Source: Trametes villosa (Eukaryota > Basidiomycota > Agaricomycetes > Polyporales > Polyporaceae). From it: a stretch of DNA of 64,000 nucleotides. The number at the start of each line of letters is the position of its first letter. Position 1 is the first letter of the stretch. Of the stretch, positions 862 to 64,000 are shown in pieces. The position numbers and the translations under genes were made by a program. The stretch covers positions 9,685,169 to 9,749,168 of the forward strand of contig PUDQ02000001.1 in NCBI GenBank assembly GCA_002964805.2, read 5' to 3'. Below the pieces are notes generated by a model, which worked only from the letters and a program-made list of their open reading frames with translations, had not been told where the DNA came from and did no database searches.

Positions 862-1424
862 ATTACCTTCCTCGCCGATGTGATTTTGTTTGGGAAGTGC
901 CTCCATGCGTCCCGTCGTGGTGTTAGATTCGGTGTACTCGCAATATGCTTGTGTATGTGTTGTACGAGGAGTCGCTCTGTGACCCGTCTTGCTTGCGTTC
1001 ATGTAGTATCTCACATTCTCGTCTCCACTCTTCCGAGAGTCGACATATCTTATGCTAGCACCTCGAAAATGGTCACTGAACTACGAGCGTCGTAGTCAAG
1101 AACGCCTGGTCGCTCGTCCCGACCTTCACCGTGAACTGCCCGGCCTCGACCGCCCACTTGCCGTCCAGCGTTCAAACCGCGAGCTCGGTCGCGTGGGTCA
1201 ATATGGCTGCACTTACTCACAGCTCCTTAGGCGTTAGGTACGAAGTCGGCGCGGACTGAAAATAGAGGCGCGCAGTGATTGTGACATAATGAGGAAGTGA
1301 GAATCAGACGAGGATACGCGGGGATATTGTACAGGGGTGGGCATCAACTACGCGTGCAATGATGGAATACTCTTTAATATCCTTGAGCTAGAATCGCTGA
1401 ACTTCTCGTATCAAGCTTGGTGAT
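862..1424. other. Intergenic stretch with a GH3 tail relic
   Basis: 3' flank of the DUF6534 gene and of the F-box-like gene A, which converge here. The only structure seen is the glycosidase relic at 1073-1196, listed separately. Confidence 0.6.
1073..1196 (-). pseudogene. Broken copy of the GH3 C-terminus
   Basis: On the minus strand this stretch matches the last ~40 codons of the intact GH3 gene at 4177-7491. It keeps ATELAV, TLDGKWAVE, GQFTVKVGTSDQ and the terminal TTTLVVQ-stop. The Trp codon before TLDGKW has become TGA (complement of 1172-1174), so the copy is stopped inside the domain. Homology fades just upstream of the HATEL segment and again just past the stop codon. It covers only the end of the fibronectin-III-like domain, so it is a relic. 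It has the same strand as the intact gene but lies on the far side of F-box-like gene A. Confidence 0.85.
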
Positions 1425-2989: not shown

Positions 2990-3457
2990 CTAGTAGAATC
3001 AAGGGTAGTATGAGCCAAGCCACGAGGATACACGGTACGAGAGATAGGGGACGTATCGTCCGAGCGTTGTGGGGGAAAAGGATGTCTCCGCTCGCAGACG
3101 TTTACCGCTTTTATTCTGTCGAAGATCGTCTGAAAAGCAGCGCCCAACAGCACGAAGCTTGTCTCATATGGCGGGAGATGAAACATCATCCTGAAGAGAT
3201 GCGGGGCTATGTGTGCGTTCCGCGCCGTGTCCACTTCGAACAGGGAGGCTGCGCTGGATCATCTCCTATCATCTCCTCAGCGGTAGGCGCTACGGAACGA
3301 CCCAGAACGGTGACTTACTGAGTAATTGTCTTGAGCCATATTTTCTCGAATCGGGAGTTGCAACATTTGGGCCTCTGTCTTTCATGTTGGTTGTCGGTAG
3401 TATCGAACGTAAGAGATCCTGAGGCCTGAGGCCAGAACGATGTAATCATGTATGCCA

Positions 3458-3754
3458 AGAGGGGGTGTAGAGGTCCCCCGTGGGAACGCCGGAATTCCAA
3501 ATCGCGAGGGAATCGTGAACGGATTGGCGGGCGCTCGACCTGTGGCAGCAGTGTGGCTACGACCTTGCCGACGCCGCGAGCCCCGTACCTCCTCACGGCC
3601 TCCGCCTGTGCTAAGAGTCCTAAGAAGCGTGTATGAGCCATTTATGAAGCCGTCCCATTTTTAGGAGTTTTTGTGCAAAAGTCGAGCGAACGAGCGAAGG
3701 GGCAGAGGAGGGTGCAAACTCCGCAGTTCCCACGGGGACCTCTACACCCCCTCT
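3458..3754. repeat. 297-bp inverted-repeat (MITE-like) element
   Basis: The left arm at 3458-3487 (AGAGGGGGTGTAGAGGTCCC, continuing to GTGGGAAC) is repeated as its reverse complement at 3726-3754 with a single base difference. The 238 bp between them has no coding pattern. No target-site duplication is visible with these end points. The form fits a small non-autonomous DNA transposon or MITE. It sits in the 1.2-kb gap between F-box gene A and the GH3 gene, which is otherwise featureless. Confidence 0.7.
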
Positions 3755-4176
3755 CGCTGCACATCGTTGGAGCCTCCCTTCGGGAAAAACGATTGTCTGC
3801 CGCCCTCGAACGTGAGGCTGATTTACGAGCCTAGTTCCCGAGCACCATCGCGACATTCGTGGTGCCGGACAAGAGTGCGGGCGTGGAGGGGTGCGCGGGG
3901 AGAGAGGTGGTTTGAGGACCCTCTACTGGTGATATTGCCTGAAACGCTCCCCAGTAGTTCACGATGTGCTGCGTGTGCCGATGGGTATGTAGTAAGTCTT
4001 TCCGGTACACACGCGAATAGCCTTGTGGTTGCTTTCGTGTGCTATCTCGACTTCCTAGTGACAATTCAATCGTGGCACCGCGGCGAACACTTTGAACCGG
4101 CATACAAGACATTCTCCCTCAAGCCGCTATTCCGTGAGTCGGCCCTGTGTCAGCTTCGTTTACGCTGCCGTGGTGG

Positions 4177-7100
4177 TCACTGCACCACAAGCGTAGTAGT
4201 CAAAACCGGCTGGTCGCTCGTCCCGACCTTCACCGTAAACTGGCCGGGCTCGACCGCCCACTTGCCGTCCAGCGTCCACACCGCGAGCTCGGTCGCGTTC
4301 ACATGCACCGTCACCCTCTTCGACGATCCAGCCCTACAAATGCGACGAGGGTTTAGCTCGCTTGCAAGTTACTACAGAGTACGGGAGGCTTACGGGATGT
4401 CGACCTTCTGGAAACCGACGAGTTGCTGGTTCGGGGTGACGACGGAGCTGACGAGGTCGGTGATGTAGACCTGCACGACCTCCTTGCCGTCGCGGTCGCC
4501 GGTGTTGTGTACGGTGACGGAGACAGAGAAGCCGTCGTTCGTCCCGATGGGCGACTTCGATAGTGCGAGGTCGGTGCTGCGTCCAATTTCAGTCAGGACT
4601 GTCTTTCGTCGGAGGAACGAGCGCCGGGCTTACTAGTTGAAAGTCGTGTAGCTCAGGCCGTGTCCGAAACTCCACAACGGGATCGGACTATCGAGAACAT
4701 ACTGCGTAGTTCACGCTCAGCACAGTGTGCACCTACATTCAACACGCTTGAAACGTACCTGGTGGCCGAACATGAGCGTGCCGTCGTCGAGAACGTGCCC
4801 GGCGTCGATTGGTCGGCTGCCCTTCAGGTAGTTGTAGAACATGGGTGTCGTGCCGACGCTACGCGGGAAAGACACGGGGAGCTTCCCTGCGCTGAGCAGT
4901 TAGTTGCTAACCTTCCGAGCCGTGTGGAGGCTGTACGTACCGGAAGGGTTGACGTCTCCGAAGATGACCTCGGCGAGCGCGAGCCCGCCGAGCTCCCCAG
5001 GGTAAAACTGCTGCACGACGGCGTCCGCATCTGGACAAGGAATGCCACATTAGGCCGGTTTACGATACCAAGGAGGTAAGTTCATGCAGCGCGCACGTTC
5101 TTGTATCCACGGCTCCGCGACGGGCTTCCCGCTCACGAGCACCACAACTGTCGGCTTGCCCACCGCCTTGACCGCCTGTACGAGCTGCAGCTGCGCCCCA
5201 ACCAGCCCGAGGTCGGACAAATCGACATGCTCGCCCGTCGTCGCGTTCGTACCGGGCGTCCAGAGCAGCGTCTGGTCGAGCGACCAGGTGCCGACCATGA
5301 CGACGGCGACGTCGGACGCCTGCGCGGCCGCGACCGCGGCGGGGATGCCGGAGACGTCGTTGGACCAGAGTTTGGAGCCTTCTGCGTAGTTGAGCTTGAT
5401 GGAGGTGTTGGTGAGGAGCTGCGTGAAGCCGGCGAGTGGGGAGATGCCGTTGTTGGAGGCGTTGAAGAAGACGTAGTCGCCGAACTACGAGGTGGAGTGA
5501 GGTCGTTAGCATCAGCCACTGAATGGGAGTTGAAGAGAGTGTGGGACGTACGGAGACGCGGTCGACTTGCGGCCCGATGAGCGCGAGCGAGGAGATGGAC
5601 TTGCTGAGCGGGAGCGTGTTCCCCCGGTTCTCGAGCAGCACGATCGTCTCGCGCTCCATGTTGTGCAGCAGCTCGCGCGTCTCGGACGTGCGCAGAGTGT
5701 CAAGGTAGTCCTCGTACGGATACGGATCTGCGAGACCAATCAGTATGCCGCAAGAAGTGATGGGACGGCGGCGCATACTCTCGAACAAACCGAGGGCGAA
5801 CTTGGTGCGTAGCATTGCCTTCACGGTCTCGTCGATGAACTTGATGTCCACGGTCCCGGCTTTGACTTGGTCTGGGAAAGCACACCATAGTCACTGTGAG
5901 TAACCTTTCTCCCAGCATAGCCCCGCCTCAGTCGCGCGTCCGTCTTACCTGGAAGTGTTAGGTAGGTGAAGGTTCCACCGCCCATCTCGCCGCTGATGCC
6001 GTTCTCGAGCGCGGCTTTCGCGGCGCACTCGCGCGTGTCGCATGTGCCGTGCGTGGTGATGAGGAGGTCAACGGAACCTGCGTCCGAGGTGACCCAGTAC
6101 TTGTAGCCCCATTCGTTCCGGAGCTATTTGTTGAGGTGAGCGTCATAGCTAACGTGAAGGTGTGGATCAGTTCGACGCACAATGTCTGTCAGTAGGTCTG
6201 GAAGCGCGCAATGAATCAGCCTATACTGGATATGTGGGTGGTGAGCGCGTTACGTACGTTTGTTCGCGATGGCCGGGATCCCGTCGTAGCTCGAGTACGC
6301 GGTCATGATCGACAGGCTCTCCACGCACGCGCGATTGAACGGCCTCAGGTAGGCTGAGCGCAGCTCGCGCTCTCCTCCAGTCACCTGCGCGATGTTCCTG
6401 TTGCACAACGTGAGCCATTTGACGTGTAACCAGTGTGAGCGAGACTGTGAACGTACAATCCGCCTTGAGGGCTCCCGAAGGCAGCAAAGTGCTTGCACGT
6501 CGCGGCCATGCGCGCAATCGCGGACGAGCTCGCGTTCCGCCGCCTCCCGGACTGTAGCCCTGTCACGTACGCCAAGCCCATCTCCCCCGTCCTACACCAT
6601 AGTTATTAGCGCTGGTGCGCAAGATTTCAAGGGCGGGATGGATGGGCTTACAGGAAAGGGTCTTCGCCGAAGTTCTCCTCGACGCGGCCCCAGCGGAGCT
6701 CACGCGAAAGATCGAGTACGGGCGCGAAAACGTGCGAGATTCCGAGGCCCTCCGCCTCGTCCGCGATCGTCGCCGCGGCCTGCCTGAGGAGGCCGGGGTT
6801 GAAGGACGCCGCGAGGCCGATGGGCGAGGGCCAGATCGTCCCGTTGTTCGTGAACCCGTGCAGACCTGTGGGACGTGTTAAGAGCGCCGAGGGGAAGTGA
6901 TAGGGGGGGTTGGATGAGGTTACCTTCGGATTGGATGAGCGCGGGGATGCCGAGCGTAGTGTTTTCCATGAGGTAGCGTTGGCCGACTGTTACACCGAAG
7001 ACGAACTTGTCCCAGGGGGTGAGGTAGCCGCCCCAGAAGGAGCCGCCCTTTTGGGTTGCCATTTCTTCCTGGACACGTTCGCAATGAGTTGCCTATTCTC

Positions 7101-48795: not shown

Positions 48796-49865
48796 ATGGC
48801 GACTGAGCTCAACAATGCAACTCCTGTGGCTGCACAACCAGTGCCCGCCCCGGCTGCTCCCGTTCCCGCTGCTGCAGCCCAAGCCAATCCCACGGCTCCT
48901 CCTGCGGCTGCGGCTGCGGCTGCTGGTGGTGGGAACGCCCTCCGAGTTCGCTGGATTGCCGCCGACGATGCCACCATGGTTGAGGCCCTTGCTGGATTCA
49001 AGAAGGACGGCAAGCAGTCCGACTCTGGGTGGAAACCTGGAGTCTGGACAGCCATAGCAGCCCAGCTCGTCAGTCGCCCTGGTGAGGCTCCGAAGGTGGC
49101 GAAGAGCTGCCAGGATCACTGGCGTTTTGTGAGTTATTTTGTGATTATTTTGCGGTTCCTTCTGACCTTCCCGCAGCTCGTGAAGGAGTTCAATGCAGTC
49201 CGTTGTCTTCGGTCACTCTCTGGCTTCGGCTGGGACGACGACCTCAAGACGGTCACTGCAAGCACTGATGTCTGGGCTAATCTCCTTCAGGTATGGTACA
49301 ATGGATCCGTTACGGCACGTACTGACGTCCGTATAGGGAAATAAGAGCCTCGCAAAGTGGCAGTCTCGCGGTTTTCCGCTATATGATGAGATTGCCGCTC
49401 TTGTCGACGGCCGCCAGGCCACTGGCGAGTTCACCGTCCGGGTGCCTCCTTCTACTCCACCGCCACCCCCGTCCACCCAACCCCGTCGCTCGAGGTCCCC
49501 CAGTAGCTCCCCGGAGCGGATGATAACAGGCTGGGTACGTTTATATACCCTTCAGGATGCATAACCTCTAATATTATCTCCAGAGCCCGAGTCCTGGTCG
49601 TGGCCGCAGCCGTTCGCCGCGGCCGCTTGGTGGAGGTCTCCCGGCTCGCAGTGTCAGCTCAGACTCTAGCCGGTCTGGCTCGGTATCCCCGCTGCGAACC
49701 CAGCCGAAACGCAGGACTGCATCTCCTGCACCTATCTATATAACACTGGCCAGATGCGCATCTGGCGCGTGCCCTTTGCGTGCCCCCGTGCGTGCCTCGC
49801 GTTTTATGGGACAACCGCTGGGCCGATTGCTTAGCTGTTTTCAGAAGATAGTAGGTCCATATTAG
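48796..49865 (+). CDS. Myb/SANT-like protein, 3' end replaced by a telomere-type repeat
   Basis: Exons 48796-49128, 49177-49290, 49337-49534 and 49584-49865 keep frame for 308 residues. After an Ala/Pro-rich start, residues ~50-200 form a Myb/SANT-like domain: VRWIAADDATMVEAL, SGWKPGVWTAIAAQL, AKSCQDHWRF, LRSLSGFGWDDDLKTVTAS and RGFPLYDEIAALVDG. Basidiomycete genomes carry many of these, some next to transposases. A Ser/Arg/Pro tail follows. At 49731, within codons reading TASPA, the sequence changes to the conserved junction of the telomere-type element. The last ~44 codons come from its repeat and end at TAG 49863-49865. The natural C-terminus is therefore lost; the protein is a chimera if expressed. 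Confidence 0.78.
49731..49767 (+). repeat. 37-bp junction sequence with 16-bp palindrome (copy 1)
   Basis: Begins CCTATCTATATAACACTGG and runs into the perfect palindrome CCAGATGCGCATCTGG, then CG. Identical copies occur at 62392, 63118 and 63186. In this copy the left neighbour is the coding sequence of the SANT-like gene. Confidence 0.9.
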
Positions 49866-51200
49866 GGCTACAGAACACAACTTGTTTCATGTCAATAGGT
49901 GCAGCGGTTGTGCCACAATCGGGGGCACGTGCCTGCGTGCCCACGTATTCGCTGCGTGCCCTTTGCGTGCCCCCTGGATTCTGGCCCAACCGCTGCACCA
50001 ATTGCTTAGCTGTCTTCAAAAGATATTAGGGCTATATTAGAGCTACAGAATGCATCTTGTTTTGTGCTGATAGCCTTAGCCGTTGTGCCGCAATCGGGGG
50101 CACGTGTGCGCATGCCCCTTGCGTGCCCCCACTTTTGCTGCGTGCCCCCTGGATTGCAGACCAACCACTTGGCCTATCGCTTAGCTGTTTTCAAAGTATG
50201 TTAGGTATATATCAGGGCTACAAATAGCAACTTGATTCATGTTTATATCTGCTTCCATTGTCCTGCAATCAGGGGCACGTGTGTGCATGCCCCTTGCGTG
50301 CCCCAACCTTGGCTGCGTGCCCCCTGGATTGTGACCCAGATACTAAGTCAATCGCTTAGCTGTTTTCAGAAGATAGTAGGTCCATATTAGGGCTACAGAA
50401 CACAACTTGTTTCATGTCAATAGGTGCAGCGGTTGTGCCACAATCGGGGGCACGTGCCTGCGTGCCCCTTGCGTGCCCCCTGATCTGTGACACAGCTACT
50501 TGGCCGATTGCTTAGCTGTCTTCAAAAGATATTAGGACAGTATCAGAGCTACACAAAGCAACTTATTACATGTCAATATGTGCAGCCGTTGTCCCACAAT
50601 TGAGGGCACGTGCCTGCGTGCCCCCTGCATGCCCCCTGCGTGCCCTTTGCGTGCCCCCTGGATTTTGGCCTCCCCACTGGGCCGATCACTTACCTGTCTT
50701 CAAAAGATATTAGGTCCATATTAGTGCTACAAAACACAACTTGTTTCGTGTCAATAGGTGCAGTCATTGTGCCACAATCGGGGGCACGTGCCTGCGTGCC
50801 CCCTGCGTGCCCTTTGCGTGCCCCCGTGCGTGCCTTGCGTTTTATGGGACAACCGCTGGGCCAATCGCTTAGCTGTCTTCAAAAGATATCAGGTCCATAT
50901 CAGGGCTACAGAACACACGTTGTTTCGTGCCAATAGGTGCAGTAGTTGTGCCACAATCGGGGGCACGTGCCTGCGTGCCCCCGTATTGGCTGCGTGCCCC
51001 CTACGTGCCCTTTGCGTGCCCCCTGAATTGTGACCCAACCGCTTGACCTATTGCTTAGCTGTGTTCAAAAGATATTATAGCTATATCAGGGCTATAGAAC
51101 ACAACTTGTTTTGTGTTGATAGCTATAGTCGTTGTGCCACAATTGGGGGCACGTGCCTGCATGCCCCTTGCGTGCCCCCTGTGTGCCCCTTGTGTGCCCT
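49768..51200 (+). repeat. Subtelomeric tandem array, 8 units of ~175 bp
   Basis: The marker CTTAGCTG (once CTTACCTG) starts near 49830, 50005, 50180, 50355, 50511, 50689, 50868 and 51054, so spacing is 175 bp three times, then 156-186 bp. Each unit carries a TTCAAAAGATATTAGG-like segment, GGGCTACAGAACACAACTTG, GTTGTGCCACAATCGGGGGC, the palindrome GGCACGTGCC, and runs of GCGTGCCCC. Unit 4 nearly repeats unit 1. Nothing coding. Confidence 0.9.
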
Positions 51201-51339
51201 CTACCTGCCTCTTTTAATAAGGGCAACTGGTCATGGTACAAGATCTATATAACAGCTGATCAATCAGCCTTCAAAACGCACTTACTTTCATGATTTTATG
51301 TCTTGCTAGCCTACAGCAACGATGAGCAAGCCTTAAGCA

Positions 51340-51840
51340 AGAGGTGACGTGACCATTGAGGGCAATCTGTCCTCACCTGTCACACAGAGGTGACGGTCCA
51401 CAAGAATCTTGTGGACCGTCACCCCCCTGTTACCAGTGACGTGACCAGAATTGAGCGAGGGTGGATGTGAGTCACAATCCGTGACCAGAATCGAGCAAGG
51501 GTGGATGTGAGTCACAACTCGTGACTCACATAGGGCAAGGGTGGATGTGAGTCACAGGTCATGTGCTTCCTGTCACAGGGGAGTGACGGTCCACAAGATT
51601 CTTGTGGACTGTCACCCCTGTGTGACAACCTGTGACTGACCCTGCCTGGCAGGAAGGGTCAGTCACATCACCTGTCATATTTGTGACACTTGAGGGCAAT
51701 CTGCCCTCAATGGTCACATCACACCTGATCAGATGATGTCATTGAGGCTCAAGTGATCTAATGATGCCATCAGACATCATGTGATCAGCTTGTGTCACTT
51801 TCTGTGACACTTGAGGGCAATCTGCCCTCAATGGTCACAC
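51340..51840. repeat. Hairpin field between repeat array and helicase gene
   Basis: Contains a perfect hairpin of two 16-base arms at 51390-51422 (GTGACGGTCCACAAGA and its complement around one base). A related longer one lies at 51572-51626. TGACTGACCCTGCC pairs with GGAAGGGTCAGTCA at 51633-51665. Two TTGAGGGCAATCTGCCCTCAA hairpin-like motifs lie near 51690 and 51808. Three direct repeats containing GGGTGGATGTGAGTCACA lie at ~51463-51556. GTGAC or its complement borders nearly every element. Roles in replication or telomere maintenance are only a guess. Confidence 0.8.
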
Positions 51841-51977
51841 TGTGTGATATTAGTCAGGTGGCTACTTATTTGCTTATATTTGGCTACTATACAGACTAAG
51901 CTTCTATTGAACTCTAATCTTACCTCTCTTATCCTCTTACCACCACCATCTAACCCCAGCCCATTACTTACTTCAGA

Positions 51978-54900
51978 ATGACTCAAACCTGCCCCCTCTG
52001 CTCCAAGGCCTACAATGGCCAAAAAAATAAACATGAAAGGCTCTGCTCCCACTATATGTTCTCTGTTCATCATCATCCTCTCTCAAAGACTGGCCCCCTT
52101 ATTCCCATTGAAAGAAATAATAAAAACCACATCATCTGCAGATGCATCAAGGCTGGCAAGCTGTGCAACAAGCAGCCAGCCAACTACAACAGCCTCATGG
52201 ATCACCTGAGGAAAATGGGGGATGTGACTTGGCAGGTAAGCTTCTTTTTTAACCTTACTGTCTATTATATTCTGGAGGCTTAATAAAATAATCTAGCTGC
52301 CTCAGTCTGCCCCTGCCCCTGCTCCTGCCTCTGGCCTGCCTGTGATCCCTGAGGATCCTTCTGCCCCTGGCACCCCTATTGTGAGTCTGATATTTATATA
52401 AATATTCTGGTGGCTCAAATATTATATAGCCTTCAAGGCCTTCCACTCCCCAAACCCCTCCCCACTCCCCTAGGCCCATGTCAGTGGTTCATAGCCCTGG
52501 CCAGGCCTCCAACACCTCCAGGATGTCTGTGGACCCCCCTGCTGTCCTAGCTCCCCCCCCTGGGCTTCCACAGCCATCAGAGGTGAGTGCTGGCTTGAGT
52601 ATATGCATTATTCATTGCTTATAATATCTAATAGCTTTACGATGTCCCTGCTGGCACCCTGGCCACCTGGGGCTTCCTCATCAACCGCCGGCTCAAGTCC
52701 CTGGTCTGCATGGCCTGCCAGGCGGTAGTGCTCCCCTCCAACGCCCCCAATCACCTCACCCGCCAGCACAAGGGCTGCCAGGTGTCGGTCGACAAGGCCC
52801 TGCTCAGCACCATCGTTGAGCAGGAGGGCCTTGACACTGCCTGGCCTGAGATCTCTACCGCCAATCCGGTGGTGGAGTTTGAGGGCCTGGAGCGTGTGTA
52901 TGGGTACGTGTGCCCCCTCTGCCCCACCCTGTTCCAGAACAGCAAGCACGTGGTAGAGCACGCATCAAGGGAGCACCAGCACACTGTCGCCCCTGCCGAC
53001 CTGCCACGCAGCTATATGCAGCGCCTCTCCCAAGCGCCTGGCAACCGCTCCTGGTTCCCTGTCACCCCCCGCGCGGCCCAACTCCACTCCGCCTCCACCA
53101 ACTACCTCACCTCGCTGCGTCGTGAGCTGGACGCCCGCCCCCCGCTGCCTGCCGCTGACCTTGACCACCGCCACATCAGCCCCTGGCACGTCACCACGCG
53201 CTGGATGCAGTACACCGAGGGCAAGGATCCGGTGCGCATGCTGGGGCTGATTGAGCCGCCCAAGGAGGGTGATTCCCTCTTCCCCCTCATCGCCTGCGTC
53301 CGCCACTACATCGCGGGTGCGTACGAGCTTATCCCGCACACCAGCGAGGTGTGCCTTCAAGTCCTGCACACCGAAACGATGACGGAGTAAGTCCCACCCT
53401 GCCTATAGTCTTTACCAACTAACCAACACCCTGCAGCGACTACAATCGCCACCCCTTCGGGCAGCACCAGCTCGATGACACGCTGCGCGCATACACCCGC
53501 CTCGTGACACAGCTGCTGTACCTGCTGCTGCGTGCGGAGGCTGAGCTCGACCTGCCAGCTGACGTGAGGGAGCGGGTGGCCACCCTCCGTGTAGCCCTGG
53601 ACCGGGACATGGAGGAGGCAGAGGAGGCTGTCCACCAGCTTCTTCTTGCCCTGTGGACGTGCGAGTGGACTCCCTCCGCGGACAACCTCTTCCCGGACCC
53701 CACCCTGCGCTTCGTGATCCACACGCAGGTCAACCGTGACGGCAGCCTGAAGAAGCCGGAGGACGCAACAGGCATCTTTGCCAAGCTGACGTACGACATG
53801 GTATGTGGCTGCTTTAACTGCGTTCAACTCATGCTGACTCTGCGCAGCGCTTGGTCTTCCTCCGCGAGTGCCACAACCGCCTCGCTACCCCTGCCCACCC
53901 CTCCCTCACAGCCTCCGCACGCGAGCTGCGTGTCTGGTTCACCAAGGGGCTTGAGTCGACCTTCCACACGCTCAAGTCCCTCCAGCACCGGGCGTCCACC
54001 ATCACCATGAACACCCAGAACGACCCAAACATGGCGTGGAAGGACGACAAGACCTTCACCAGCCTGGTCTTCATGGGCAAGGAGGTCAGCCTGCAGACAC
54101 TGCGCAAGTGCCAGGGCGCGCTGGAGGACGATACGGTCAAGCTGCTCACGGACGACCTGCTCTTTGGCCACCCCTTCGCCATCGACATCCCTGCGCTCAA
54201 GGACGAGATGGGCAACATGATCGCAGGCTACTCGCTCATCACAGACCGGGTGAACGCGGACACCCTTGGCCCCCTCGACCAGCTGGCCGACCACGTCCTG
54301 CGCACCCCAGACCTGGCTAAGCGCTACATCATGTGCGTGCGTGATGGCAAGCCGGTCTGGAACGCAGTCGCCCTCTCCACCTGGCTTAGCGCCTTCGCCC
54401 GCCTCAACCTCCTCTGCCTTGTCCAGGCGGAGATGAACTGTGGTGCCCCTGGCCGTACGACCGAGCTGACCGCTATGCCCACTGCCAACACGCCAGGTGG
54501 GATGCAGCGCGCCCTGCGCATCATCAGCGACCACGTCGTCCTCATGCGCACATACCACAAGATGCGGGCTGCCTCTGGCCGTGACCGCGTCATTCCCCAC
54601 TCCCTCAACGCGGCGCTCGGAGCCGTGTTCATCTACAAGGAGGCGATCTGCCGTCCGTTCGCCCAGCTCTGCGCGAGTGTGCTATTCCCTGGCAACCAGA
54701 AGGTCAAGTCCCTCTACCAGGACTTCCTGTTCGTCAACTATGACAGGGCCTTCATCGGGGATGACATCACGAACGAGATGAAGCGCTGGACCGGCAAGCA
54801 CCTGGGTATTGAGCTTGGCATCCAGAAATGGCGCCAGTGCTCTACCCCTCTCCGCCGCAAGCACGCTGGCCTGGAGGAGATGTGGCTAGAGGACCAGGAG

Positions 54901-57591
54901 ACGGTCGACTCTGCGCAGGCTGGCCACTCGCACAGCACGGACACCCACCGCTACGGCGTCACGAACTGGGCGGACACTGGCATGGCTGAAGACTACATCG
55001 GCCCCTTCCTCAAGACCTCTGTGCTCTGGCACAATGTTCTGCACCTCGTACCAGGTAAGTGCTCGATTATTGCGCTAATATGTGTGCTTATATTCGCTGC
55101 TAGGCGGCAAACTCCTCTCCCTGGCTGCTGCGCGCCGCACCAACTTCAAGCCAGCCCCTGCCCGTCTCCCCAGTGCTCGTGAGCCAGGGATTGACTTGGG
55201 GGCTGTGGTGCAGGCTGCAATCCAGGCAGTCAAGGTCGAGATCGAGCCCAGGCTGGTGGCGATCGAGCAGCGCATTCAAGACACATCCACCTCAACCAAG
55301 CAAGAGTTGAGGGGGATGTTTGACGAGCTAAAGACTTTCCTGGGCCAGCCTGCCGCACCAGGTCCAGCCCCAGCACGCCCAGCAAGCCCTGGTAAGCACT
55401 TCATATTCTGTTGCACTGAGTGACTTGCATCTGACTTGGTCTGCAGAAGACCGGACTGAGGGGATGTACTACGATCCCCCTCCTCTGCCTGCCCCTGCCC
55501 CTGCCGCACGTCCAGTCGCTGCCCCACCCCCTGCTCCCACCCCTGCCCCAGGTAAGCCAACTATGACTTTACTAGCGCTTAGACTGACCGCTCTTTAGCC
55601 CCTCCGCCCACAGAAGCCGATGCGCTAAGTGCCCTGCGCCTTGTGCTGCACAAACCGCAGGCTGAGTGGTCCAACGAGGGCCAGAAGCTTGCGGTGATGG
55701 CTGGGCTGGCCTGGAAGAAGGACCTCATCGTCATTCTTCCTACTGGCTCAGGGAAGAGCGCCATCATTGCCACGATTGCGCACATGGAGCAGCTCAAGGT
55801 CACGGCCATCCTCTGCCCCCTCAAGTCCCTGCTCAGCGACTGGCAGCGCCGGCTGAACGAGCTGCAGTATCCCTTCGAAGTCTTCCAGCCTAGCAAGCCC
55901 GTCATCTCAGGTCAGAAGCCCATCGTCCTTGTCTCTCTCGACGCCACCTCCACCACCGCTTGGGCTCAGGCGGTCGCTTCTATGCGGGCTGAGACTCCCC
56001 TCCACCGCTATGTCATTGACGAAGCGCACCTGGTCATCACGGAGGCTGACTATCGCCACGTCATGCGCCGGGTGAAGGAGCTGCGAGTTAACACTGCTCA
56101 GCTAGTGCTGCTGTCTGCCACCATCGCACCAACCACAGTGGCCAGGATGTACAAGGACTTCAGCCTTGCCAAGGAAGAAGATACGCAGATCATCCGTGCG
56201 TCGTCTAACCGCCCTGAGCTGTGGTTCCACCTGCCAGAGCGCTTCAGCCATTTGAACAAAGAGGTAAGTGCAGGCTTTACAACCGTTGTTTGACTTTTGT
56301 GCTTATTACTATGCAGGTTCTATCTGGCCTACAAATCAGCATCCTGAGGGCCTCCAAGTCCCTGGGCAGCGCAGACCGTGTCCTGGTGTTTGTGACCCGG
56401 CTCGACCATGGGCACATGGTAGCCAAGGCGCTCGGGTGCGACTTCTACCGCGGCAGCACGGACGAGGCGCTCACGGACCAGGAACGTGAGGCGATGGTCA
56501 CCCGGTGGCGACTAGGTGCAGCCAGGCACATGGTTGCGACGGACGCCTTTGGCCCAGGCAACGACTACCCCCACATCCGTCAAGTCTGGTTCGTTGGCCG
56601 GCCTCGTGGACTGGTCGACATGCTTCAGATGGCTGGGCGTGCTGGACGCGATGGCAGGCGAGCGGACATCCACTTCATCCTTCTTGTCGACCAACCGTCT
56701 CCCTCCGATGGCGCTAACAAGGACCTTGGATGCCAAGAGCTGGACGTGCTGATGAAGAAGCCCAAGGACCGGTGCTGGCGCGAAGTCATCAGCAGCTTCC
56801 TGGACGGCGTACGTGGTGCGTTCTGCCACGTGAACCAGCTGGACTTCCGCTGCCCGCACTGCGCTTCCCTCTCCCCCAACCCACCTGCAGAGTGGCAGAA
56901 CGCCACACCTACCCTTCCCCCTGCCCAACTCATTTCTGAAAGCATGCTGTCACCCCAAGTTGGAGCGACCAGGGCGCGTGCACCTTCGACGTCAATTGCG
57001 TTGGTGAGCATGGAGGCAGGGTCTGGTCGAGCGTTTGCGGAGGCATCCCACGTCTCGAAGCGCATGAAGGACGAGCGCGTCTCGAAGCTGCAACCGTTGG
57101 TGGAGCGGGTGCTGGAGGGGATGAACAGGCTGAGTGGACACTGCTCGGTGTGCCATATGCTGAAGAAGGAGTTGGTGGCGCAGCATGGGCGAGGTGTGTT
57201 GGACTGCGAGGCGATGGAGGCTGTGGCTGGAGGCAGGGTGTTCTTGGACTGGAAGAAGAACCTGAACTACGCGAAGGGTGCAGGTGTGTGCTTCTCATGC
57301 CACTTGCCTTTCCTGCAGGACTTGGTGCACCAGGCGAAGAAGGGGAAGGAGGTAGTGTGCAACCCTACACACAGGGACATGGTGCTACCTGTGGTGTACC
57401 TGGCGTACAGGGTTGAAGTGTGGAGGGTTAAGCTGGAGGCAAGGTTTGGGATGACATGGGAGAATGAGGAGGTATACAAGTTATGGCTGATTGAGAAGAA
57501 GGGTAAGGGGAAGGGGAAGGGCCAGGGGGAGGAAGAGGTGGAACTAAGCAATGTTATGGAGGTGTTCTTGTGGGTAGCTAGGGAGTTGTAG
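51978..57591 (+). CDS. Telomere-linked RecQ-like helicase with zinc fingers and DUF3505-like region
   Basis: Ten exons (51978-52235, 52297-52380, 52430-52582, 52635-53386, 53437-53800, 53848-55054, 55104-55391, 55447-55551, 55599-56263, 56317-57591) join in frame to an intact 1716-residue protein. The N-terminus has CPLCSKAY and ICRCIKAGKLC cysteine/histidine clusters and a Pro-rich linker. Residues ~170-300 resemble DUF3505/OrsD-like zinc fingers (CMACQAVVLPSNAPNHLTRQH; YGYVCPLC). A long middle domain of unknown function follows to ~940. The C-terminal helicase has Walker A LPTGSGKS (Lys1123), DEAH (1211-1214), LSATI, and QMAGRAGRDGR (1396-1406), the last typical of RecQ. A further Cys-rich part follows (CPHC, CSVCHMLKK, CFSCH), then a Lys/Gly tail. 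Such genes sit next to telomeres in several fungi. A TATA-like TTATATTT lies ~100 bp upstream. Confidence 0.88.
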
Positions 57592-57790
57592 TGTAGGGAG
57601 TAGTTGAAGTGCTAAGCTAGGGAATGTAGGGAGTTGGAGTTGAAGTTGAAGCTGCAGTGTTATGGGCGAGTTTTTGAGTGTTTTAAGGTGAAGTAGACTA
57701 AGCTTAGGGGTTGCAGGTAAGTTAGGAGTTGTGAGTTAAGGGGTGAAGTGTTTTAAGGGAGTAAGCTAGGGTTAGGGTTAGGGTTATGAG
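57592..57790 (+). repeat. G-rich degenerate tail and interstitial telomeric tract
   Basis: After the helicase stop the plus strand is made of T/G/A-rich words (GTAGGGAG, GAAGTGCTAAG, GTTTTAAGG). It ends with TAGGGTTAGGGTTAGGGTTA at 57767-57786, three TTAGGG telomeric units. The stretch GGGCGAGTTTTTGAGTGTT is shared with the last bases of the window (from about 63970). The G-rich strand runs rightward, so the telomere side of this unit is on the right. Confidence 0.85.
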
Positions 57791-58374
57791 CACTCCTTCC
57801 CCTCCCTAGGGTCAGTCTTCCCCTGCCAGACCCTAGGGTCAGTTTCCTAGGGTCAACCCTAGCCATACCCTGAGAGCAACAGTCCCAACCAGACAGTGAG
57901 GCTCTGTCATGACGGCACCAATACGGTCACATCCTGGGTGGCTTCTCCTCACGGCCATAGCTACACAAGGAGTCACTTACTTGTGGAACACAGACCCGCA
58001 AGCTATGAAGCATGCTACACAGGCGGTTGCATATGTGTATAAAACAATCAGTGCTATTCCCCGATGCGTGCTGTGAGGAGTGGTCATAACAAGTCATGCA
58101 CAGTGAGTGAGAACACACCTGGCAGGTGCTTTGCACAAACACATACCACAGAGCTGTCATTCCAAATAGCCTTGACAACATGGAGACCTCACGCACGGTA
58201 CACAGAAACAGGGAGTATGGATCTCAGCTGTCAATTGAAATGAGCCCAAGACGGGCACAGAAGAAGGCATATCGTGCTTCAGTGTCAAAGCACCAGTACC
58301 CTGTGCCCACCGGGGCAGAGAGGACACGCGGCACGCCACTCCCGCAGCGGCAGCGGCACCGTGTCGCAATCCTG
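57791..58374. other. Unassigned subtelomeric DNA
   Basis: Starts with three repeats of the CCTAGGGTC word (57806-57865), then ~500 bp without recognisable coding or repeat pattern. Confidence 0.5.
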
Positions 58375-58980
58375 CGTCGTTCCAGGAAAGATGCGTTGGG
58401 CTGGCCCAGCGGTCGCAGGGATGTCGCGTTGGCCGCCCGCACTGGCGCGTCTTTCCTGGAGCGACGCGGACGGCCAGACGCAGAACTGCGACACACTGCC
58501 ACTGCCGCTGCAGGAGCGATCCACGGCGCCAGAACGACCCGCGTCGCTCCAGGAAAGACGCGCCAGTGCGGGCGGCCAATCTATCACCCCTCACATATTC
58601 TCTTGCGTTACTATCGGATCCGCTCTCAGTTGTATTATTCCTCTTCCGCATTATTGCACCGGCGAGACACTCCGTAACACCATAGCATGCACCGCGCCAG
58701 AACGACCCGCGTCGTTCCAGGAAAGATGCGTTGGGCTGGCCCAGCGGTCGCAGGGATGTCGCGTTGGCCGCCCGCACTGGCGCGTCTTTCCTGGAGCGAC
58801 GCGGGTCGTTCTGGCGCCGTGGATCGCTCCTGCAGCGGCAGTGGCAGTGTGTCGCAGTTCTGCGTCTGGCCGTCCGCGTCGCTCCAGGAAAGACGCGCCA
58901 GTGCGGGCGGCCAACGCGACATCCCTGCGACCGCTGGGCCAGCCCAACGCATCTTTCCTGGAACGACGCGGGTCGTTCTT
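58375..58980. repeat. Fold-back element, two copies with opposite loop orientation
   Basis: Copy 2 (58695-58978) has arms of ~105 bp (58695-58802 and 58875-58978, nearly perfect complements) around a ~72-bp loop. Copy 1 (58375-58579) has the same left arm, the same loop, and a right arm cut after ~39 bp. The loop of copy 1 is the reverse complement of the loop of copy 2. A ~110-bp unrelated spacer separates the copies. No coding capacity is likely; open frames across it are mirror images of each other. Confidence 0.85.
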
Positions 58981-59012
58981 GTCGCGGAGCTAGGCCCGGC
59001 ACGACGAGGTAC

Positions 59013-59437
59013 TGCACACAACTAAGAAAACTAACACGATCTAACTCCCGGGGTGGTGGACGAAGGTCTCACAACACCTGAGCGTAGGTTCTCACGACGA
59101 ATCTAGCCCAAAGACCAAGTTAACATTCAGAACATAAGAGCGAATACAAAATAAGGCTTACCTAGCCCAAAGACCAAGAGGTCAAGATGAGGGCTAGGGT
59201 CGCTACAGGGGGTCCTTATATACTAAGCAAGGGGAGCCAAACATGTACAAACGTAGAGGTGGTCTGTGCGCACAATGCACTCAACCTGCAGGTAGGGGTC
59301 AGGTGATGAGTCACGTGATCTATCTACTCTAACTCTAAGTCCCGTGCGTGCTAAGTACCGTAGAATGGCCGTAGAAAAGCAGGAAAAATGCGGAAAAATA
59401 TGGAAAAAATACAGGGCGTCTAGTCGTCTCCACGACA
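59013..59437 (-). mobile_element. 3' LTR of a Ty3/gypsy element (approximate)
   Basis: On the minus strand, a purine tract (AGAGGGGGGG) directly follows the chromodomain gene's stop, as a polypurine tract does. It is followed by TGTCGTGGAGACGAC, which fits the TG start of an LTR. A TATA-like CTTATATACTA (plus-strand reading) lies inside, and the sequence runs to TGTGTGCA at 59013. No second LTR is present to confirm the ends. Confidence 0.5.
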
Positions 59438-59448
59438 TTACCCCCCCT

Positions 59449-60870
59449 CTACTGTCCATTGTCCCTGATGGACCCACGGCCCGGGAAGCGTCCGCCCTCC
59501 CAGTCGCGGTCCGGAGGTGCGGCGTCGGTGAAGGTCACCCGCGGTTGCCATGGAAGGTTCTTGAAGTCGACGGCCTGGATCTTTCGAGGTGCGCTAGGTG
59601 CGCGCTTGTGGAACTCGGCTACCTTTTCTGGTGCGTTGGTTAGGTTTGATGCCGGTTCCCAGCTGTCCTCGCCCTCGCCGTACCCTTTCCAGCGCACGAG
59701 GTATTGTAGCTGGTTACGGTAGCGGCGGCTATCCAGGATCCGATCGACTTCGTATTCTTCTTCACCCTCTACCTCCACGGGTTCGGGTGGCGGTGGTAAG
59801 CGTCCGTTCACCTCGTTCCCCCTCCATGGGGATAGGTGGTTAACGTGGAACACGTTGTGAAGCTTGAGGGCGGGGGGAAGGGCCAAGCGGTAGTCGAGGT
59901 CTCCGATCCGCTCCGTGACTTCGAACGGACCGAGCTGCCGAGGTCCTAGCTTAGGCGTGGCTTGATGGATGTGGATGTTCTTGGCCGTGAGCCAGACCCG
60001 GTCGCCGACCTTGAACGTGTGAGCTTTCCTCTTGCCGTCTTCGTAAGCTTGCTTCATGCGCTCTTTACTCATGCGCAGTGCCGCTTCCGCCTCCTTCCGT
60101 GCTTCCCGGAGCTTGGTGAGCCGAGCGTCGAGTGATGGGATCTGCGTGGGGCGTCCTGCCGGGATGGTGAAGTCCGGTCGGTAGCCGTATAGGACTTCGA
60201 ATGGGGGATGCCGTGAAGCCGGAAGATGGTTTGATAGTGCAGTTCGCCTATCCCTTCGGCGGTGACAGTGTCGGTGGTGGCTACCAGGTGGACTTGCTTA
60301 CTGTACAGGTCGACGTACGTGGCGATGGCGTTGAACCCTTTCGACGAGGGTAGGCCCGTGATGAGATCTACGCCCATGACGACCCACGGTCCGTCGGGTA
60401 CTTCGTGGGGCTGAAGCGTCGCGTGGGGGTGTGCGGCGGCCTTGTAGCGCTGGCACCGGTCACACCCAAGGACGTACTTCTCGACAAACCCGCTAATCCC
60501 CGGCCACCAGTATAGCCGGCTTACCAACTCCAGTGTTCCGTGCTTGCCCGGATGTCCAGCCGTAGGCGCATCGTGGCATTGCCGGACGATGGCCTCCCTA
60601 AGTCCTTCCTCGGGCGGGATGTACAACCGACCACGGTAGTACACCAGCCCACCCTCCTCTTCCCATTCCCACGTCCCATCCGTCAACTTCCGCGGTCCGT
60701 CCTTCCGTAGGGCTTCCAAACCCTTCAGGACTTCCGCCTCCTTCCTACTGCTCTCCCTGATCCTTCCATCCAGCGGGTTCTCTACCCGGAGCGCTGCAGC
60801 AGCAATGGCCACAAAGCGCTCAGGTTTGAGCACGATCTGATCCCGGTTGTCCTCGGCATACACAGGGCCT
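59449..60870 (-). pseudogene. Decayed chromodomain Ty3/gypsy integrase
   Basis: The minus strand reads DNRDQIVLKPERF, then the integrase zinc finger (HDAPTAGHPGKHGT with GCDRCQRYKA), then the start of the catalytic core (VVMGVDLITGLPSSKGFNAI, with the first acidic residue). Near 60205 it jumps from FRLHGIP to PFEVLYGYRPDF in another frame, so roughly a hundred residues with the other two catalytic acids are missing. It continues through KVGDRVWL, GPFEVTERIGDLDYRL and the chromodomain EEYEVDRILDSR to LVRWKGYGEGEDSWEP. Upstream, reverse transcriptase and RNase H are absent (truncated near 60870). The element is dead; chromodomains of this class guide insertion to heterochromatin. Confidence 0.9.
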
Positions 60871-61744
60871 AAAGTAAGGTGGGCTAGGGCTAGGGACAGG
60901 ATTAAGCGCTCATACGCAAGTTAAGCGCTGATGGTCGGGCAAAGATCGCCGTGGCTGCACAGCCTCCTGCTGATGCCTCAGCCACTTTGTGATGGATTTG
61001 CACGGTCCCGCAGAGGTTCCGGCCGCTCTCCCTATGTCTTTCTGCTGTTCTGGCAGAGGGAGGAGGGTGTTCTGGTGGCGCGGTGGACGCGATCGCCCGG
61101 TGGACGAGTCTCCCGTGCTCCCCTCGGGGTGCAGAGTGCGTATTCCGGCCGCCCAAGGCCGCCCCTCCCTTCATAGTCTGTATAGTCCGTGTAGTTACAG
61201 TACTAGTACTTATACAATTTCTTTGAACGTGTCTAAACACTCCCCTAGCTCGCAATGCGCCTGCGCTTCGGCCTCCCTCTGCGGAGTCGCGGTGGGACGC
61301 CCCTGCACTTATAAATATGATATAATATATATGTGCGAGCCTGCTTGAGTTTGCTGTGAGCGGATACGACAGACAACAGACTCGAAAACAGAACACGAAA
61401 TATGAAGACATTGTAAATATGTATGCCCTTATAGTATGCCAAAGACTGCTGTCTCGGAGTTGCGCGAACAAAGCCTTGCGCAGATGAGTAGACGCCCAAT
61501 GCCGAGGCAGCACACTTGTGCTGCCTCGGTGTCCGACCGGCGAAAAGACGCCCAATGCCGAGGCAGCACAAGTGTGCTGGCCCGGTGTGTTCGATCTGAT
61601 TTAGGCGTGGCTTGTGGTGCGAGTGTGTTTTCCGACAGGGTGTTCGTGCGACAGGTCTATTATATTGTCGATACAAGATGCAGCCGAATATACAAGATGT
61701 AGTGAAATATACAAGAGTATGTACGATACAAACACTACCGCGCC
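60871..61744. other. Unassigned repeat-rich gap
   Basis: Between the truncated retroelement and the BAH/PHD-type gene. An AT-rich part (61305-61335, TTATAAATATGATATAATAT) could be an LTR remnant but no partner is visible. The only clear repeats are the two palindrome-bearing units at 61491-61585. Confidence 0.45.
61491..61585. repeat. Two direct repeats, each with a CAAGTG-type palindrome
   Basis: GACGCCCAATGCCGAGGCAG occurs at 61491 and 61547. Each is followed by a palindrome centre: GCACACTTGTGC-like in the first, flanked by CCGAGGCA and TGCCTCGG, and CACAAGTGTG in the second. Confidence 0.8.
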
Positions 61745-62391
61745 CTACACGCATCCCTTGCACACCGGACAAAAGTACCGCTCTGCCATGAGGGCAAAGC
61801 GACGCAGCTCGATGGAAATGTGGGGGAAGTTCAAGCGTTCCATCCAGGTGGAGACTCCCTCCGGGGGTGGGCTGCGTTGACGGTCGTGGTAGGACCGCGC
61901 GAGCCACAGGAAGTGCTCGTGCGAGAAGGGGAAGATGCGCCCGCAGCGGTCGACGGCGGGGGTACGTTGGATGGGGCAGATGATGAGCTCCCACCAGAGC
62001 ATCTCGTCCATGGAGGGGCCGGGCGACCAGTTGCGCTCCTCGATGAGACGACGGATGAACTCGTCGTCTGGGATATGAGAGAGACACCGGAGGTGGAACC
62101 ACCTCTTGCAGCGGCCGCAGAAGCGGACCTTGTCGGCGGTGGGGCGGTAGATGCCCTGGTAGATGCAGCGGCTGCGGCAGAACTTCTCGCCGTACTGAAT
62201 GAACCGCGTCGCACGTCAGCAAACTCGGGCGATGATAAATGAGAGACGTGGACGGCGTGGACGTACGGTCAGGATGGTGCATCCAGGGGGGTTTCCGTAC
62301 TCGTCCACCAAGAGCAGGACGTTGGCGCGAAGGAAGGGGACCTGGGACCAGTAGGGGCGGAGGGAGATCGTCTTGTCGTTGAAGACGAGGA
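61745..62391 (-). pseudogene. BAH/PHD-type gene, 5' part removed by telomere-type element
   Basis: Exons 62391-62267 and 62194-61745 remain in frame: ISLRPYWSQVPFLRANVLLL, then PPGCTILT, a 72-bp intron, and CRSRCIYQGIYRPTADKVRF followed by CGRCKRWFHLRCL. The C-x2-C ... H-x2-C layout is that of a PHD finger; the first exon may be the end of a BAH-like domain. The C-terminal ~100 residues end in a CPVCKG cluster. At 62392 the coding sequence is replaced by the conserved junction of the telomere-type element, so the start and N-terminal part are gone. Proteins of this layout read histone marks in chromatin silencing. Domain names are tentative. Confidence 0.7.
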
Positions 62392-62428
62392 CCTATCTAT
62401 ATAACACTGGCCAGATGCGCATCTGGCG

Positions 62429-63117
62429 CGTGCCCTTTGCGTGCCCCCGTGCGTGCCTCGCGTTTTATGGGACAACCGCTGGGCCGATCGCTTAGCTGTT
62501 TTCAAAAGATAGTAGGTCCATATTAGGGCTACAGAACACAACTTGTTTCATGTCAATAGATGCAGCGGTTGTGCCACAAACGGGGGCACGTGCCTGCGTG
62601 CCCCCGTATTCGCTGCGTGCCCTTTGCGTGCCCCCTGGATTCTGGCCCAACCGCTGCACCGATTGCTTAGCTGTCTTCAAAAGATATTAGGGCTATATTA
62701 GAGCTACAGAATGCATCTTGTTTTGTGCCAATAGCTATAGCCGTTGTGCCACAATCGGGGGCACGTGTGCGCATGCCCCTTGCGTGCCCCCACTTTTGCT
62801 GCGTGCCCCCTGGATTGCAGACCATCCACTTGGCCTATCGCTTAGCTGTCTTCAAAGTATGTTAGGTATATATCAGGGCTACAAATAGCAACTTGATTCA
62901 TGTTTATATCTGCTTCCATTGTCCCGCAATCAGGGGCACGTGTGTCCATGCCCCTTGCGTGCCCCAACCTTGGCTGCGTGCCCCCTGGATTGTGACCCAG
63001 ATACTAAGTCAATCGCTTAGCTGTCTTCAGGAGATATTGGAACCATGATAAGGCTACAGAACACAACTTGTTTCGTGCCAATAGGTGCAGCCGTTGTCTC
63101 ACAACTAGGGGCACGTG
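62429..63117 (+). repeat. Subtelomeric tandem array, 4 units of 175 bp
   Basis: Same repeat family as 49768-51200, with the marker CTTAGCTG exactly every 175 bp and the GGCACGTGCC palindrome. The fourth unit breaks off at GCACGTG, where the third junction sequence begins. Confidence 0.9.
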
Positions 63118-63253
63118 CCTATCTATATAACACTGGCCAGATGCGCATCTGGCGGGTACAAGGTTGGGTACAAGGTGGGTACAAGCCTATCTATATAACA
63201 CTGGCCAGATGCGCATCTGGCGGGTACAAGGTTGGGTACAAGGTGGGTACAAG
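63118..63253 (+). repeat. Two tandem 68-bp units headed by the junction sequence
   Basis: Each unit is the 37-bp junction (with CCAGATGCGCATCTGG) followed by GGTACAAGGTTGGGTACAAG and a further GGTGGGTACAAG. The GGTACAAG words are a simple array unlike the 175-bp repeat. The two units are identical. Confidence 0.9.
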
Positions 63254-63439
63254 CCTAATGTTAGGGCTGTAGCGCAACAACGAGGGCACGTAGACCCTTG
63301 TACCCGGGTGTTTTCTGATAGCTCTGGACGAGGGCTACACGATGCATCTGGTTTCGTGTCCATACGTGCACTCACACTCTGGGAATGGGCTTGTACCCGG
63401 CTTGTACCCAGATTGCATAGGGGTGACAAGTGACGTGAC

Positions 63440-63575
63440 CCAAATAGAGGGAGGCTGGATGTGAGTCACGGATGTGACAACCGGTGTGACTGACCGTGTC
63501 TGGCAGGCAGGGTGTGTCACAGTAGAGTGACATTCCACAAGAATCTTGTGGACCGTTACCCTTGTGTGACCGGTA
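63440..63575. repeat. Reduced hairpin field of copy 2
   Basis: Carries one GGCTGGATGTGAGTCAC unit, a TGACTGACC/GGTGTGTCA imperfect hairpin, and the GTGACATTCCACAAGA/TCTTGTGGACCGTTAC hairpin at 63527-63559. These match in order the elements of 51390-51665, with changes in the outer arms. Confidence 0.8.
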
Positions 63576-64000
63576 AGCAAGTGAAGTGTAAGGGTTACTT
63601 GAGTTATTGTAAGTGACTACTAGGTGGACTACAGGTGTTTTTAGGAGTGACTACTAACCAGTGGGTGAAGTGTAAGGGATACTACTAAGTGTACTACTGA
63701 CCAGTAAGCAAGTGGGGTGTAAGGGTTACTTGAGTTACTGTAAGGGACTACTACCCGGGCTAAGAAGATGTGTAAGGGGTACTACTAACTGGTGTGTAGG
63801 GAGTACTACTAAGGGGTGAGTCAGATTGAAGGGCAAAGTGTAGTAAGGGAGGGTAAGTGGTACTAAGCTTAGGGTGTGAAGTAAGTAGGTGAAACTGAAG
63901 TGTAGAGTGACTAGGTAGAGTACTGAAGTGTAAGGGAGATGGTGTTGGAGTGTAAGCTAGAGTGTTGTGGGCGAGTTTTTGAGTGTTTTAAGGTGAAGGA
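63576..64000 (+). repeat. Degenerate telomere-like G-rich tail
   Basis: Irregular repeats of GTGTAAGGG, GTTACTTGAGTTA and GGACTACTA-like words. The T/A/G-rich composition on the plus strand resembles degenerate telomeric repeat. The last 40 bases match the tail of copy 1 near 57665. Confidence 0.75.

What the first reader, a model, noticed from the sequence alone, without database searches (positions are those of the whole stretch)
49731..64000. Two copies of a telomere-type element, one with and one without its helicase gene
Seen: the blocks at 49731-57790 and 62392-64000 share, in order and strand, the 37-bp junction, the first 175-bp repeats, the hairpin field and the G-rich tail. Only the first contains the 1716-residue helicase gene and its leader. 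Known: fungal telomere-linked helicase genes sit in subtelomeric repeat units. Inference: copy 2 is a non-autonomous or deletion derivative, so the family may move or amplify as a unit using ends present in both copies.
Basis: partly seen in the sequence, partly recalled or inferred. Interest (0 to 1): 0.9.

Follow-up and report, generated by a model that had tools for sequence, protein, structure and literature searches.

The report
One-ended telomere element with recombinase-helicase gene
The end of this fungal chromosome carries members of a family of mobile chromosome-end caps that begin with the same short palindromic tag, join other chromosome ends at a simple short motif, and include a gene that appears to fuse a DNA-cutting recombinase to a helicase.

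Summary
The shared features are real, but copy 2 is not a shortened copy 1. The window is the right end of contig C1. The "37-bp junction" is the proximal end ("head") of a cap family: an invariant 15-mer CTATCTATATAAYAC, 2 nt, then an 18-bp palindrome of three types. The assembly has 34 exact 15-mers and none with one mismatch; all 34 have the palindrome. Palindromes and bodies are shuffled. Native versions of 14 target sites show joining at Y-C-(T): native +1 is C in 14 of 14, +2 is T in 10 of 14; -1 is Y in 32 of 34 heads. The native DNA expected beyond the target is missing distal to 16 of 17 heads tested (one ambiguous); where an end is seen it is TTAGGG. So the caps look one-ended. Copy 1 is an intact 8-kb cap whose 1716-residue protein has OrsD, a cryptic tyrosine-recombinase-like domain (no Pfam hit; found by fold and conserved R-K-R-H-Y) and a DEAD/DEAH helicase. 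Copy 2 is a 0.7-kb stub, nearer to contig C62 (98.2%) than to copy 1 (95.6%), cut off by a cap of another body type. Best reading: the recombinase-helicase cuts heads and joins caps to other ends. The joining pattern is shown; the enzyme's role is inferred.

The parts
49732..49766 (+). Head of copy 1 (proximal end): 15-mer CTATCTATATAACAC, TG, 18-bp palindrome GCCAGATGCGCATCTGGC
49812..51172 (+). A-type satellite body, period 175 bp, 7.8 copies
51373..51839 (.). Hairpin field (six inverted-repeat pairs) ahead of the gene leader
51978..57591 (+). Ten-exon gene (my exon model: 51978-52235, 52297-52380, 52430-52582, 52635-53386, 53437-53800, 53848-55054, 55104-55391, 55447-55551, 55599-56263, 56317-57591), 1716 aa: OrsD-type zinc-finger region aa 179-280, tyrosine-recombinase-like region about aa 600-935, DEAD and Helicase_C aa 1098-1251 and 1309-1405
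53848..55054 (+). Exon 6, carries the tyrosine-recombinase-like domain; candidate catalytic residues R740, K775, R866, H897, Y906
57592..57765 (+). G-rich tail of copy 1
57766..57786 (+). Telomeric repeats at the distal end of copy 1 (CTAGGGTTAGGGTTAGGGTTA)
57787..60857 (.). DNA joined beyond the old telomere: its first 534 bp are 100% identical to C19, sharing TTAGGGTTA just before the join; includes a large inverted repeat and a Ty3/gypsy integrase fragment on the minus strand
60858..62392 (.). Subtelomeric block S2, with its own sharp proximal end (ATACACAGGG...); it is the target DNA of the copy-2 head
62393..62427 (+). Head of copy 2 (same palindrome type and A body as copy 1); native target in C21, C1 (4.82 Mb) and C80 reads CTGCTCG at this point
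62393..63118 (+). Copy-2 A-type stub (head + 3.7 satellite units), 98.2% to C62, 95.6% to copy 1
63119..63153 (+). Head with GGGTACAAGG (B-type) body, joined into the A satellite at gtgc|CTG
63187..63221 (+). Second B-type head 68 bp on: nested cap or simple tandem duplication
63187..64000 (+). B-type helicase-less cap: head, satellite, one hairpin (63516-63570), G-rich tail, cut by the contig end

Best explanation
The blocks belong to a family of chromosome-end caps that move by one end. SHOWN by sequence: a 35-bp head (invariant 15-mer + 2 nt + 18-bp palindrome) forms the sharp proximal end of caps with different bodies; heads are joined to unrelated DNA 3' of a Y-C dinucleotide, usually followed by T in the native site; the native distal DNA is not found after the cap; where the far end is seen it is TTAGGG; the intact member encodes a protein with an OrsD-type region, a domain with the tyrosine-recombinase/topoisomerase-IB fold and conserved R-K-R-H-Y, and a helicase. 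INFERRED: the recombinase-helicase recognises the palindrome (as a dimer site, or as a hairpin on single-stranded DNA exposed by the helicase, as integron integrase does with attC), cuts at the head, and joins the cap to Y-C-T sites at other chromosome ends. Because the cap already ends in a telomere it needs no second end: the target end simply acquires a new cap and telomere and loses, or had already lost, its distal DNA. Helicase-less caps that keep the head would be mobilised in trans. Copy 1 was later buried when its telomere failed and captured subtelomeric DNA through a short TTAGGGTTA match.
Against: No activity is shown. Foldseek alone gives no E <= 0.001 (best 0.17 and 0.043); no Pfam recombinase hit in any of 23 members and no recombinase in a profile search of PDB sequences (only MYB3, E 1.2). 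The stretch with H897 and Y906 is modelled at pLDDT about 50-62 and most fold alignments stop before it, so H and Y rest on motif and conservation. Classical tyrosine recombinases need several matching overlap bases; here only 1-2 are shared. Block S2 shows a sharp proximal end at 10 places without this head, so sharp one-sided joins need not involve this enzyme. 7 of 34 heads do not lie within 15 kb of the contig end they point to (C1 4.83 Mb x2, C19 x2, C35, C80 x2). One site (C21:30558) has conflicting natives, the best being G at +1, and C19:84749 could not be read; both were left out of the 14. For 2 of 34 heads -1 is A.
Confidence: 0.5

Rival explanations
1. Passive subtelomere exchange: caps spread by break-induced replication and end joining after telomere failure, as described for Pyricularia; the head is only a structural boundary (fragile palindrome) where copying tends to start, and the helicase gene is a passenger or helps recombination.
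For: In this very window DNA beyond copy 1 was captured at a TTAGGGTTA match, 100% identical to C19 over 534 bp. The helicase gene in C1 at 4.82 Mb is broken by a join to S2. Duplicative capture at failed telomeres is documented in PMC8381367 (passages).
Against: Passive copying would not give the same first base in 34 places with unrelated flanks, nor a Y preference one base outside the head and C at +1 in 14 of 14 native sites.
Confidence: 0.2
2. RNA-templated addition in reverse sense: an antisense transcript ending at the head (3' stem-loop) is copied onto chromosome 3' ends by a telomeric reverse transcriptase acting in trans, like HeT-A or MoTeR attachment.
For: Sharp proximal end, variable distal end, 1-2 nt of match at the join, a stem-loop 17 nt from the end and one-endedness all fit; S2 behaves alike and its 345-aa ORF reads towards the centromere.
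Against: No reverse transcriptase in the element; the encoded domain is recombinase-like instead; the -1 Y and +2 T preferences suggest a cut site rather than priming alone.
Confidence: 0.15
3. Ordinary two-ended DNA transposon whose second end was missed because of truncation or assembly gaps.
For: Many caps are truncated or run into contig ends; the assembly has 140 contigs.
Against: Seven heads with a known native site can be followed to TTAGGG arrays without the native distal DNA appearing.
Confidence: 0.1
4. Assembly artefact: copy 2 is a misjoin at the contig end.
For: Copy 2 lies at the contig end and no reads were available; C1 (9.7 Mb) also holds caps at 4.83 Mb, which could mark a false or real end fusion.
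Against: Copy 2 differs from copy 1 (95.6%) and its second cap recurs with a different flank at a telomere-bearing contig, C130. The family pattern does not depend on this end.
Confidence: 0.05

Closest known systems
Fungal telomere-linked helicase (TLH / subtelomeric RecQ) units, e.g. Agaricus bisporus var. burnettii, Fusarium TLH regions
   Same: Multi-copy helicase gene in subtelomeric repeat units next to TTAGGG (passages of PMC7473861, and PMC12857005)
   Different: Here a defined 35-bp head, Y-C-T joining and a recombinase-like domain; [quoted passage not shown] bisporus or other fungi (passage)
Yeast Y' elements (recalled; also mentioned in PMC4522978, passage)
   Same: Subtelomeric helicase units that amplify and protect ends
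   Different: Y' spread is homology-based; no recombinase domain or head with a target motif that I know of (recalled)
Crypton transposons
   Same: DNA elements with a tyrosine recombinase, found in fungi (passages of PMC3212892)
   [quoted passage not shown] here one end, 1-2 shared bases, a fused helicase
Integron integrase with attC hairpins (recalled)
   Different: Bacterial, cassette insertion, no helicase, no telomere
MoTeR / FoTeR / HeT-A telomeric retrotransposons
   Same: One-sided attachment at chromosome ends, truncations, TTAGGG contacts (FoTeR and MoTeR passages; HeT-A recalled)
   Different: They use reverse transcriptase; none found in this gene
TATE of kinetoplastids
   Same: Telomere-associated element with a tyrosine recombinase (passage of PMC6681497)
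   Different: A retrotransposon inserted within telomeric hexamers; no helicase is mentioned in that paper's text (term count 0)
Helitrons
   Same: Helicase-bearing, hairpin near one end (recalled)
   Different: No Helitron_like_N (Rep) or PIF1 hit in the protein

Membership tests
Fungal telomere-linked helicase units | RecQ-like helicase gene in a repeat unit next to telomeric repeats | tested here: met
   DEAD and Helicase_C hits above the curated cut-off; copy 1 ends in TTAGGG; C139 copy on a contig starting with a telomere. A RecQ-specific model was not tested.
Tyrosine recombinase superfamily (domain) | Catalytic-domain fold | tested here: met
   (42 and 49 of 50 listed entries); but Foldseek alone not significant
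Tyrosine recombinase superfamily (domain) | R...K...R...H...Y catalytic residues | tested here: met
   R 45, K 46, R 43, H 46, Y 46 of 46; the usual H of the H-x-x-R box is not conserved (position varies), Q or H follows the second R; residue roles are by motif
Tyrosine recombinase superfamily (domain) | Sequence match to a known recombinase family | tested here: not met
   no Pfam recombinase in 23 members; PDB profile search only MYB3 at E 1.2
[quoted passage not shown]
   one sharp end only; native distal DNA absent for 16 of 17 heads tested
Telomeric non-LTR retrotransposon | Reverse transcriptase ORF in the element | tested here: not met
   Pfam scan of the 1716-aa protein, no such hit; non-coding parts of the cap hold no other annotated gene that I tested
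Helitron | Rep (HUH) nuclease with PIF1-type helicase | tested here: not met
Integron integrase / attC | Single-strand hairpin as substrate | not testable with these tools
   heads can fold as hairpins on either strand, but a palindrome always can
Any active mobile element | Presence/absence at orthologous ends between strains | not tested
   no second strain available; within-genome native sites only

The most novel reading that the evidence does not exclude
A DNA-only terminal transposon with a single recognised end: a tyrosine recombinase fused to a RecQ-like helicase cuts a 35-bp palindromic head and transfers everything from there to the telomere onto Y-C-T sites of other chromosome ends, so that fungal telomere-linked helicases are the transposases of one-ended, chromosome-capping elements.
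Probability: 0.4. Interest if true: 0.93.

Novelty: new variant of a known kind. Interest (0 to 1): 0.82.

Why it matters
Telomere-linked helicases have been known in fungi for decades without a clear role. If the recombinase-like domain and the head belong together, these genes are not passive riders: they would be the machinery of elements that re-cap chromosome ends, with only one end to recognise because the telomere supplies the other. That would be a new transposition logic, a natural rescue route for broken or eroded ends, and a tool candidate for adding telomere-bearing ends at short motifs. The prediction (head, Y-C-T, Y906) is directly testable.
Full report
SETTING. The window is bases 9,685,169-9,749,168 of contig C1 of an unnamed 46.7-Mb, 140-contig assembly and ends where C1 ends. 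The closest named protein relatives are from Trametes polyzona and other polypore mushrooms (78% in the recombinase-like region), so the host is probably a Trametes-like fungus (inference). Counts from the genome search are lower bounds by its own statement.

WHAT THE JUNCTION IS. The 32-bp core of the junction was found 9 times (8 exact, 1 with one mismatch). The shorter 15-mer CTATCTATATAAYAC was found 34 times, all exact although one mismatch was allowed, against 2 for the reversed control. In 34 of 34 it is followed, after 2 nt, by an 18-bp palindrome: GCCAGATGCGCATCTGGC (8, plus 1 with a changed last base), GCAGGATGCGCATCCTGC (7) or GACACTGACGTCAGTGGC (18, always with one mismatched pair). 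A second pattern search that asked only for the 15-mer less its first base and a G/C frame found 33 with reversed control 0; it misses the head with the changed last base. After the palindrome come at least six kinds of body, and palindromes and bodies are shuffled: by eye, type 1 occurs with four bodies, type 2 with three, type 3 with six. The DNA before the head is mostly unrelated from copy to copy. This is the behaviour of a defined end, not of a satellite boundary.

WHERE HEADS LIE. On 18 contigs; 30 of 34 point to the nearer contig end and 27 of 34 lie within 15 kb of the end they point to. The exceptions are told: two at 4.83 Mb inside C1 (counted as 'nearer' only because the contig is slightly longer on the other side), two in C19 (85 kb), two in C80 pointing to the far end, and C35 and C139. 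The last two do run into TTAGGG arrays (C35 8467-8589; C139 contig start). Contig ends are not all chromosome ends.

TARGET SITES. For 14 sites a copy of the same flank without the head is held. The native base at the place of the head's first base is C in 14 of 14; the next is T in 10, A in 3, C in 1. The base before the head is C in 25, T in 7, A in 2 of 34. Against local composition: 1.6e-8 for C at +1, 2.7e-4 for T at +2, 2.6e-8 for Y at -1 (1.8e-7 after collapsing the four heads at one site). Some flanks are repeats, so these are not fully independent. Two sites were left out: C21:30558, where the best comparator has G at +1 and others C, and C19:84749, where the alignment stops 5 bp short. 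For C129:86992 (kept) it stops 2-3 bp short. The -1 preference lies outside anything the head could share with the target, which speaks for a cut site rather than chance micro-homology; the third base matches the head's A in only 3 of 14.

ONE END ONLY. For 17 heads at these sites I looked for the native continuation in the DNA beyond the head (304 to 11,225 bases). 12 gave nothing; 5 gave hits. Three of these (C86:4876, C130:2034, C35:7034) fall in TTAGGG arrays, one (C44:6836) in the cap's own hairpin field, and one (63187) in the cap's own body, where nested cap and tandem duplication cannot be told apart. Seven of the 17 stretches reach TTAGGG arrays. Caps at C130:1203, C86:1321, C35:7034 and C44:6836 read head - body - hairpin - G-rich tail - TTAGGG; C3:1938 stops in the gene leader and goes straight to TTAGGG, as a healed break would. 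C139 has a head at 8395, the recombinase-like exon at 2976-4181 and a telomere at base 1, but 1201-6999 was not read.

ONE SITE, SEVERAL CAPS. At ...aaccgcatac| the heads of C86 (type 2, A body), C1 4.83 Mb (type 1, D body), C130 and C76 (type 3, B body) start at the same base, and C32 has a decayed head with a further body. Flanks are 96-99% identical (C130 80-82% over 400 bp), bodies 50-61% except C130/C76 at 99%. Either the site is used repeatedly or caps are exchanged head to head; both point to head-specific joining.

THE GENE. My ten-exon model gives 1716 residues without a stop. Pfam sees OrsD (179-280), DEAD (1098-1251) and Helicase_C (1309-1405), nothing between about 280 and 1098. 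In that gap lies a region with GRTTEL, YHK, WRQ and GHS...Y. In 46 aligned relatives R740 is kept in 45, K775 in 46, R866 in 43, H897 in 46, Y906 in 46. Two AlphaFold models (pLDDT 81.9 and 87.2) give an all-alpha domain with a three-stranded sheet; in the VIA-align second look the first 42 of 50 and 49 of 50 listed entries are tyrosine recombinases, integrases, topoisomerases or TelK. Against this: Foldseek by itself stays above E 0.04, no sequence profile sees it, and the H/Y stretch is modelled poorly. I take the fold as likely and the activity as open. Relatives occur in Trametes, Lentinus, Dichomitus, Pisolithus, Suillus, Dentipellis and Lentinula, several with a helicase domain on the same chain. 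The genome has three near-identical copies of the region (99-100%) and four weaker matches.

HISTORY OF THIS END. Copy 1 is a complete cap with telomere (49732-57786). Beyond TTAGGGTTA the sequence is 100% identical over 534 bp to C19, where TTAGGGTTA also precedes it: capture by a failed telomere is the likely cause. Then come a Ty3/gypsy integrase fragment, block S2, the copy-2 head in S2 (native CTGCTCG in C21, C1 and C80), its A-type stub, and the B-type cap. So copy 2 is at least two later caps, not a deletion of copy 1.

HOW IT MOST LIKELY WORKS. See Best explanation. Shown: head, shuffling, Y-C-T, loss of distal DNA, protein architecture. Inferred: that this protein cuts the head; that the palindrome is its binding site; that the helicase exposes single strands; that helicase-less caps move in trans.

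COMPARISON AND NOVELTY. It is a telomere-linked helicase unit by definition, which is why I file it as a new variant. It fails the defining features of Cryptons, telomeric retrotransposons and Helitrons that I could test. The A. bisporus genome paper states that subtelomeric RecQ helicases of that or other fungi had no domain beyond the helicase core (passage). In eight searches of the held library I found no report of a recombinase in them.

Noticed in passing
window 60858 onward; C1:4822291, C5, C19, C21, C23, C36, C80, C88, C98: Second sharp proximal end, ATACACAGGGYCTAAAGTAAGG: 10 exact copies genome-wide (2 mismatches allowed, reversed control 0), each preceded by different DNA (7 seen, 3), sharing AT or TAT with the native site in the two cases I compared by eye. 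No palindrome head; 345-aa ORF on the other strand without Pfam hit.
   Followed up: partly
C129:83506, C86:5436, C115:44806, C32 (L068): Third subtelomeric block starting with short TTAGGG repeats + GGAGGAGGAGCACACCGAGCG, joined to different upstream DNA (a copia-like sequence by eye, a helicase fragment) and often carrying cap heads; 11 matches of its distal 201 bp.
   Followed up: partly
window 57766-57830 and C19:79421: Old telomere followed by DNA 100% identical (534 bp) to C19, with TTAGGGTTA before the join in both: recent capture at a failed telomere.
   Followed up: partly
C1:4822290-4830720: Two cap heads and a helicase copy broken at about residue 1619 lie in the middle of the 9.7-Mb contig: internalised end, chromosome fusion or assembly join.
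   Followed up: partly
C44:5426-5530 and C35:8467-8589: Long interstitial TTAGGG arrays (17-20 units) directly distal to caps, followed by other DNA (5.4 kb and about 60 kb to the contig end); fusion, capture or misjoin.
   Followed up: no
window 58300-59000: Large near-perfect inverted repeat of GC-rich sequence next to a Ty3/gypsy integrase fragment (by eye; integrase).
   Followed up: no
C3:1-135: Cap ends inside the helicase leader and continues directly as TTAGGG: looks like a telomere healed onto a broken cap.
   Followed up: partly
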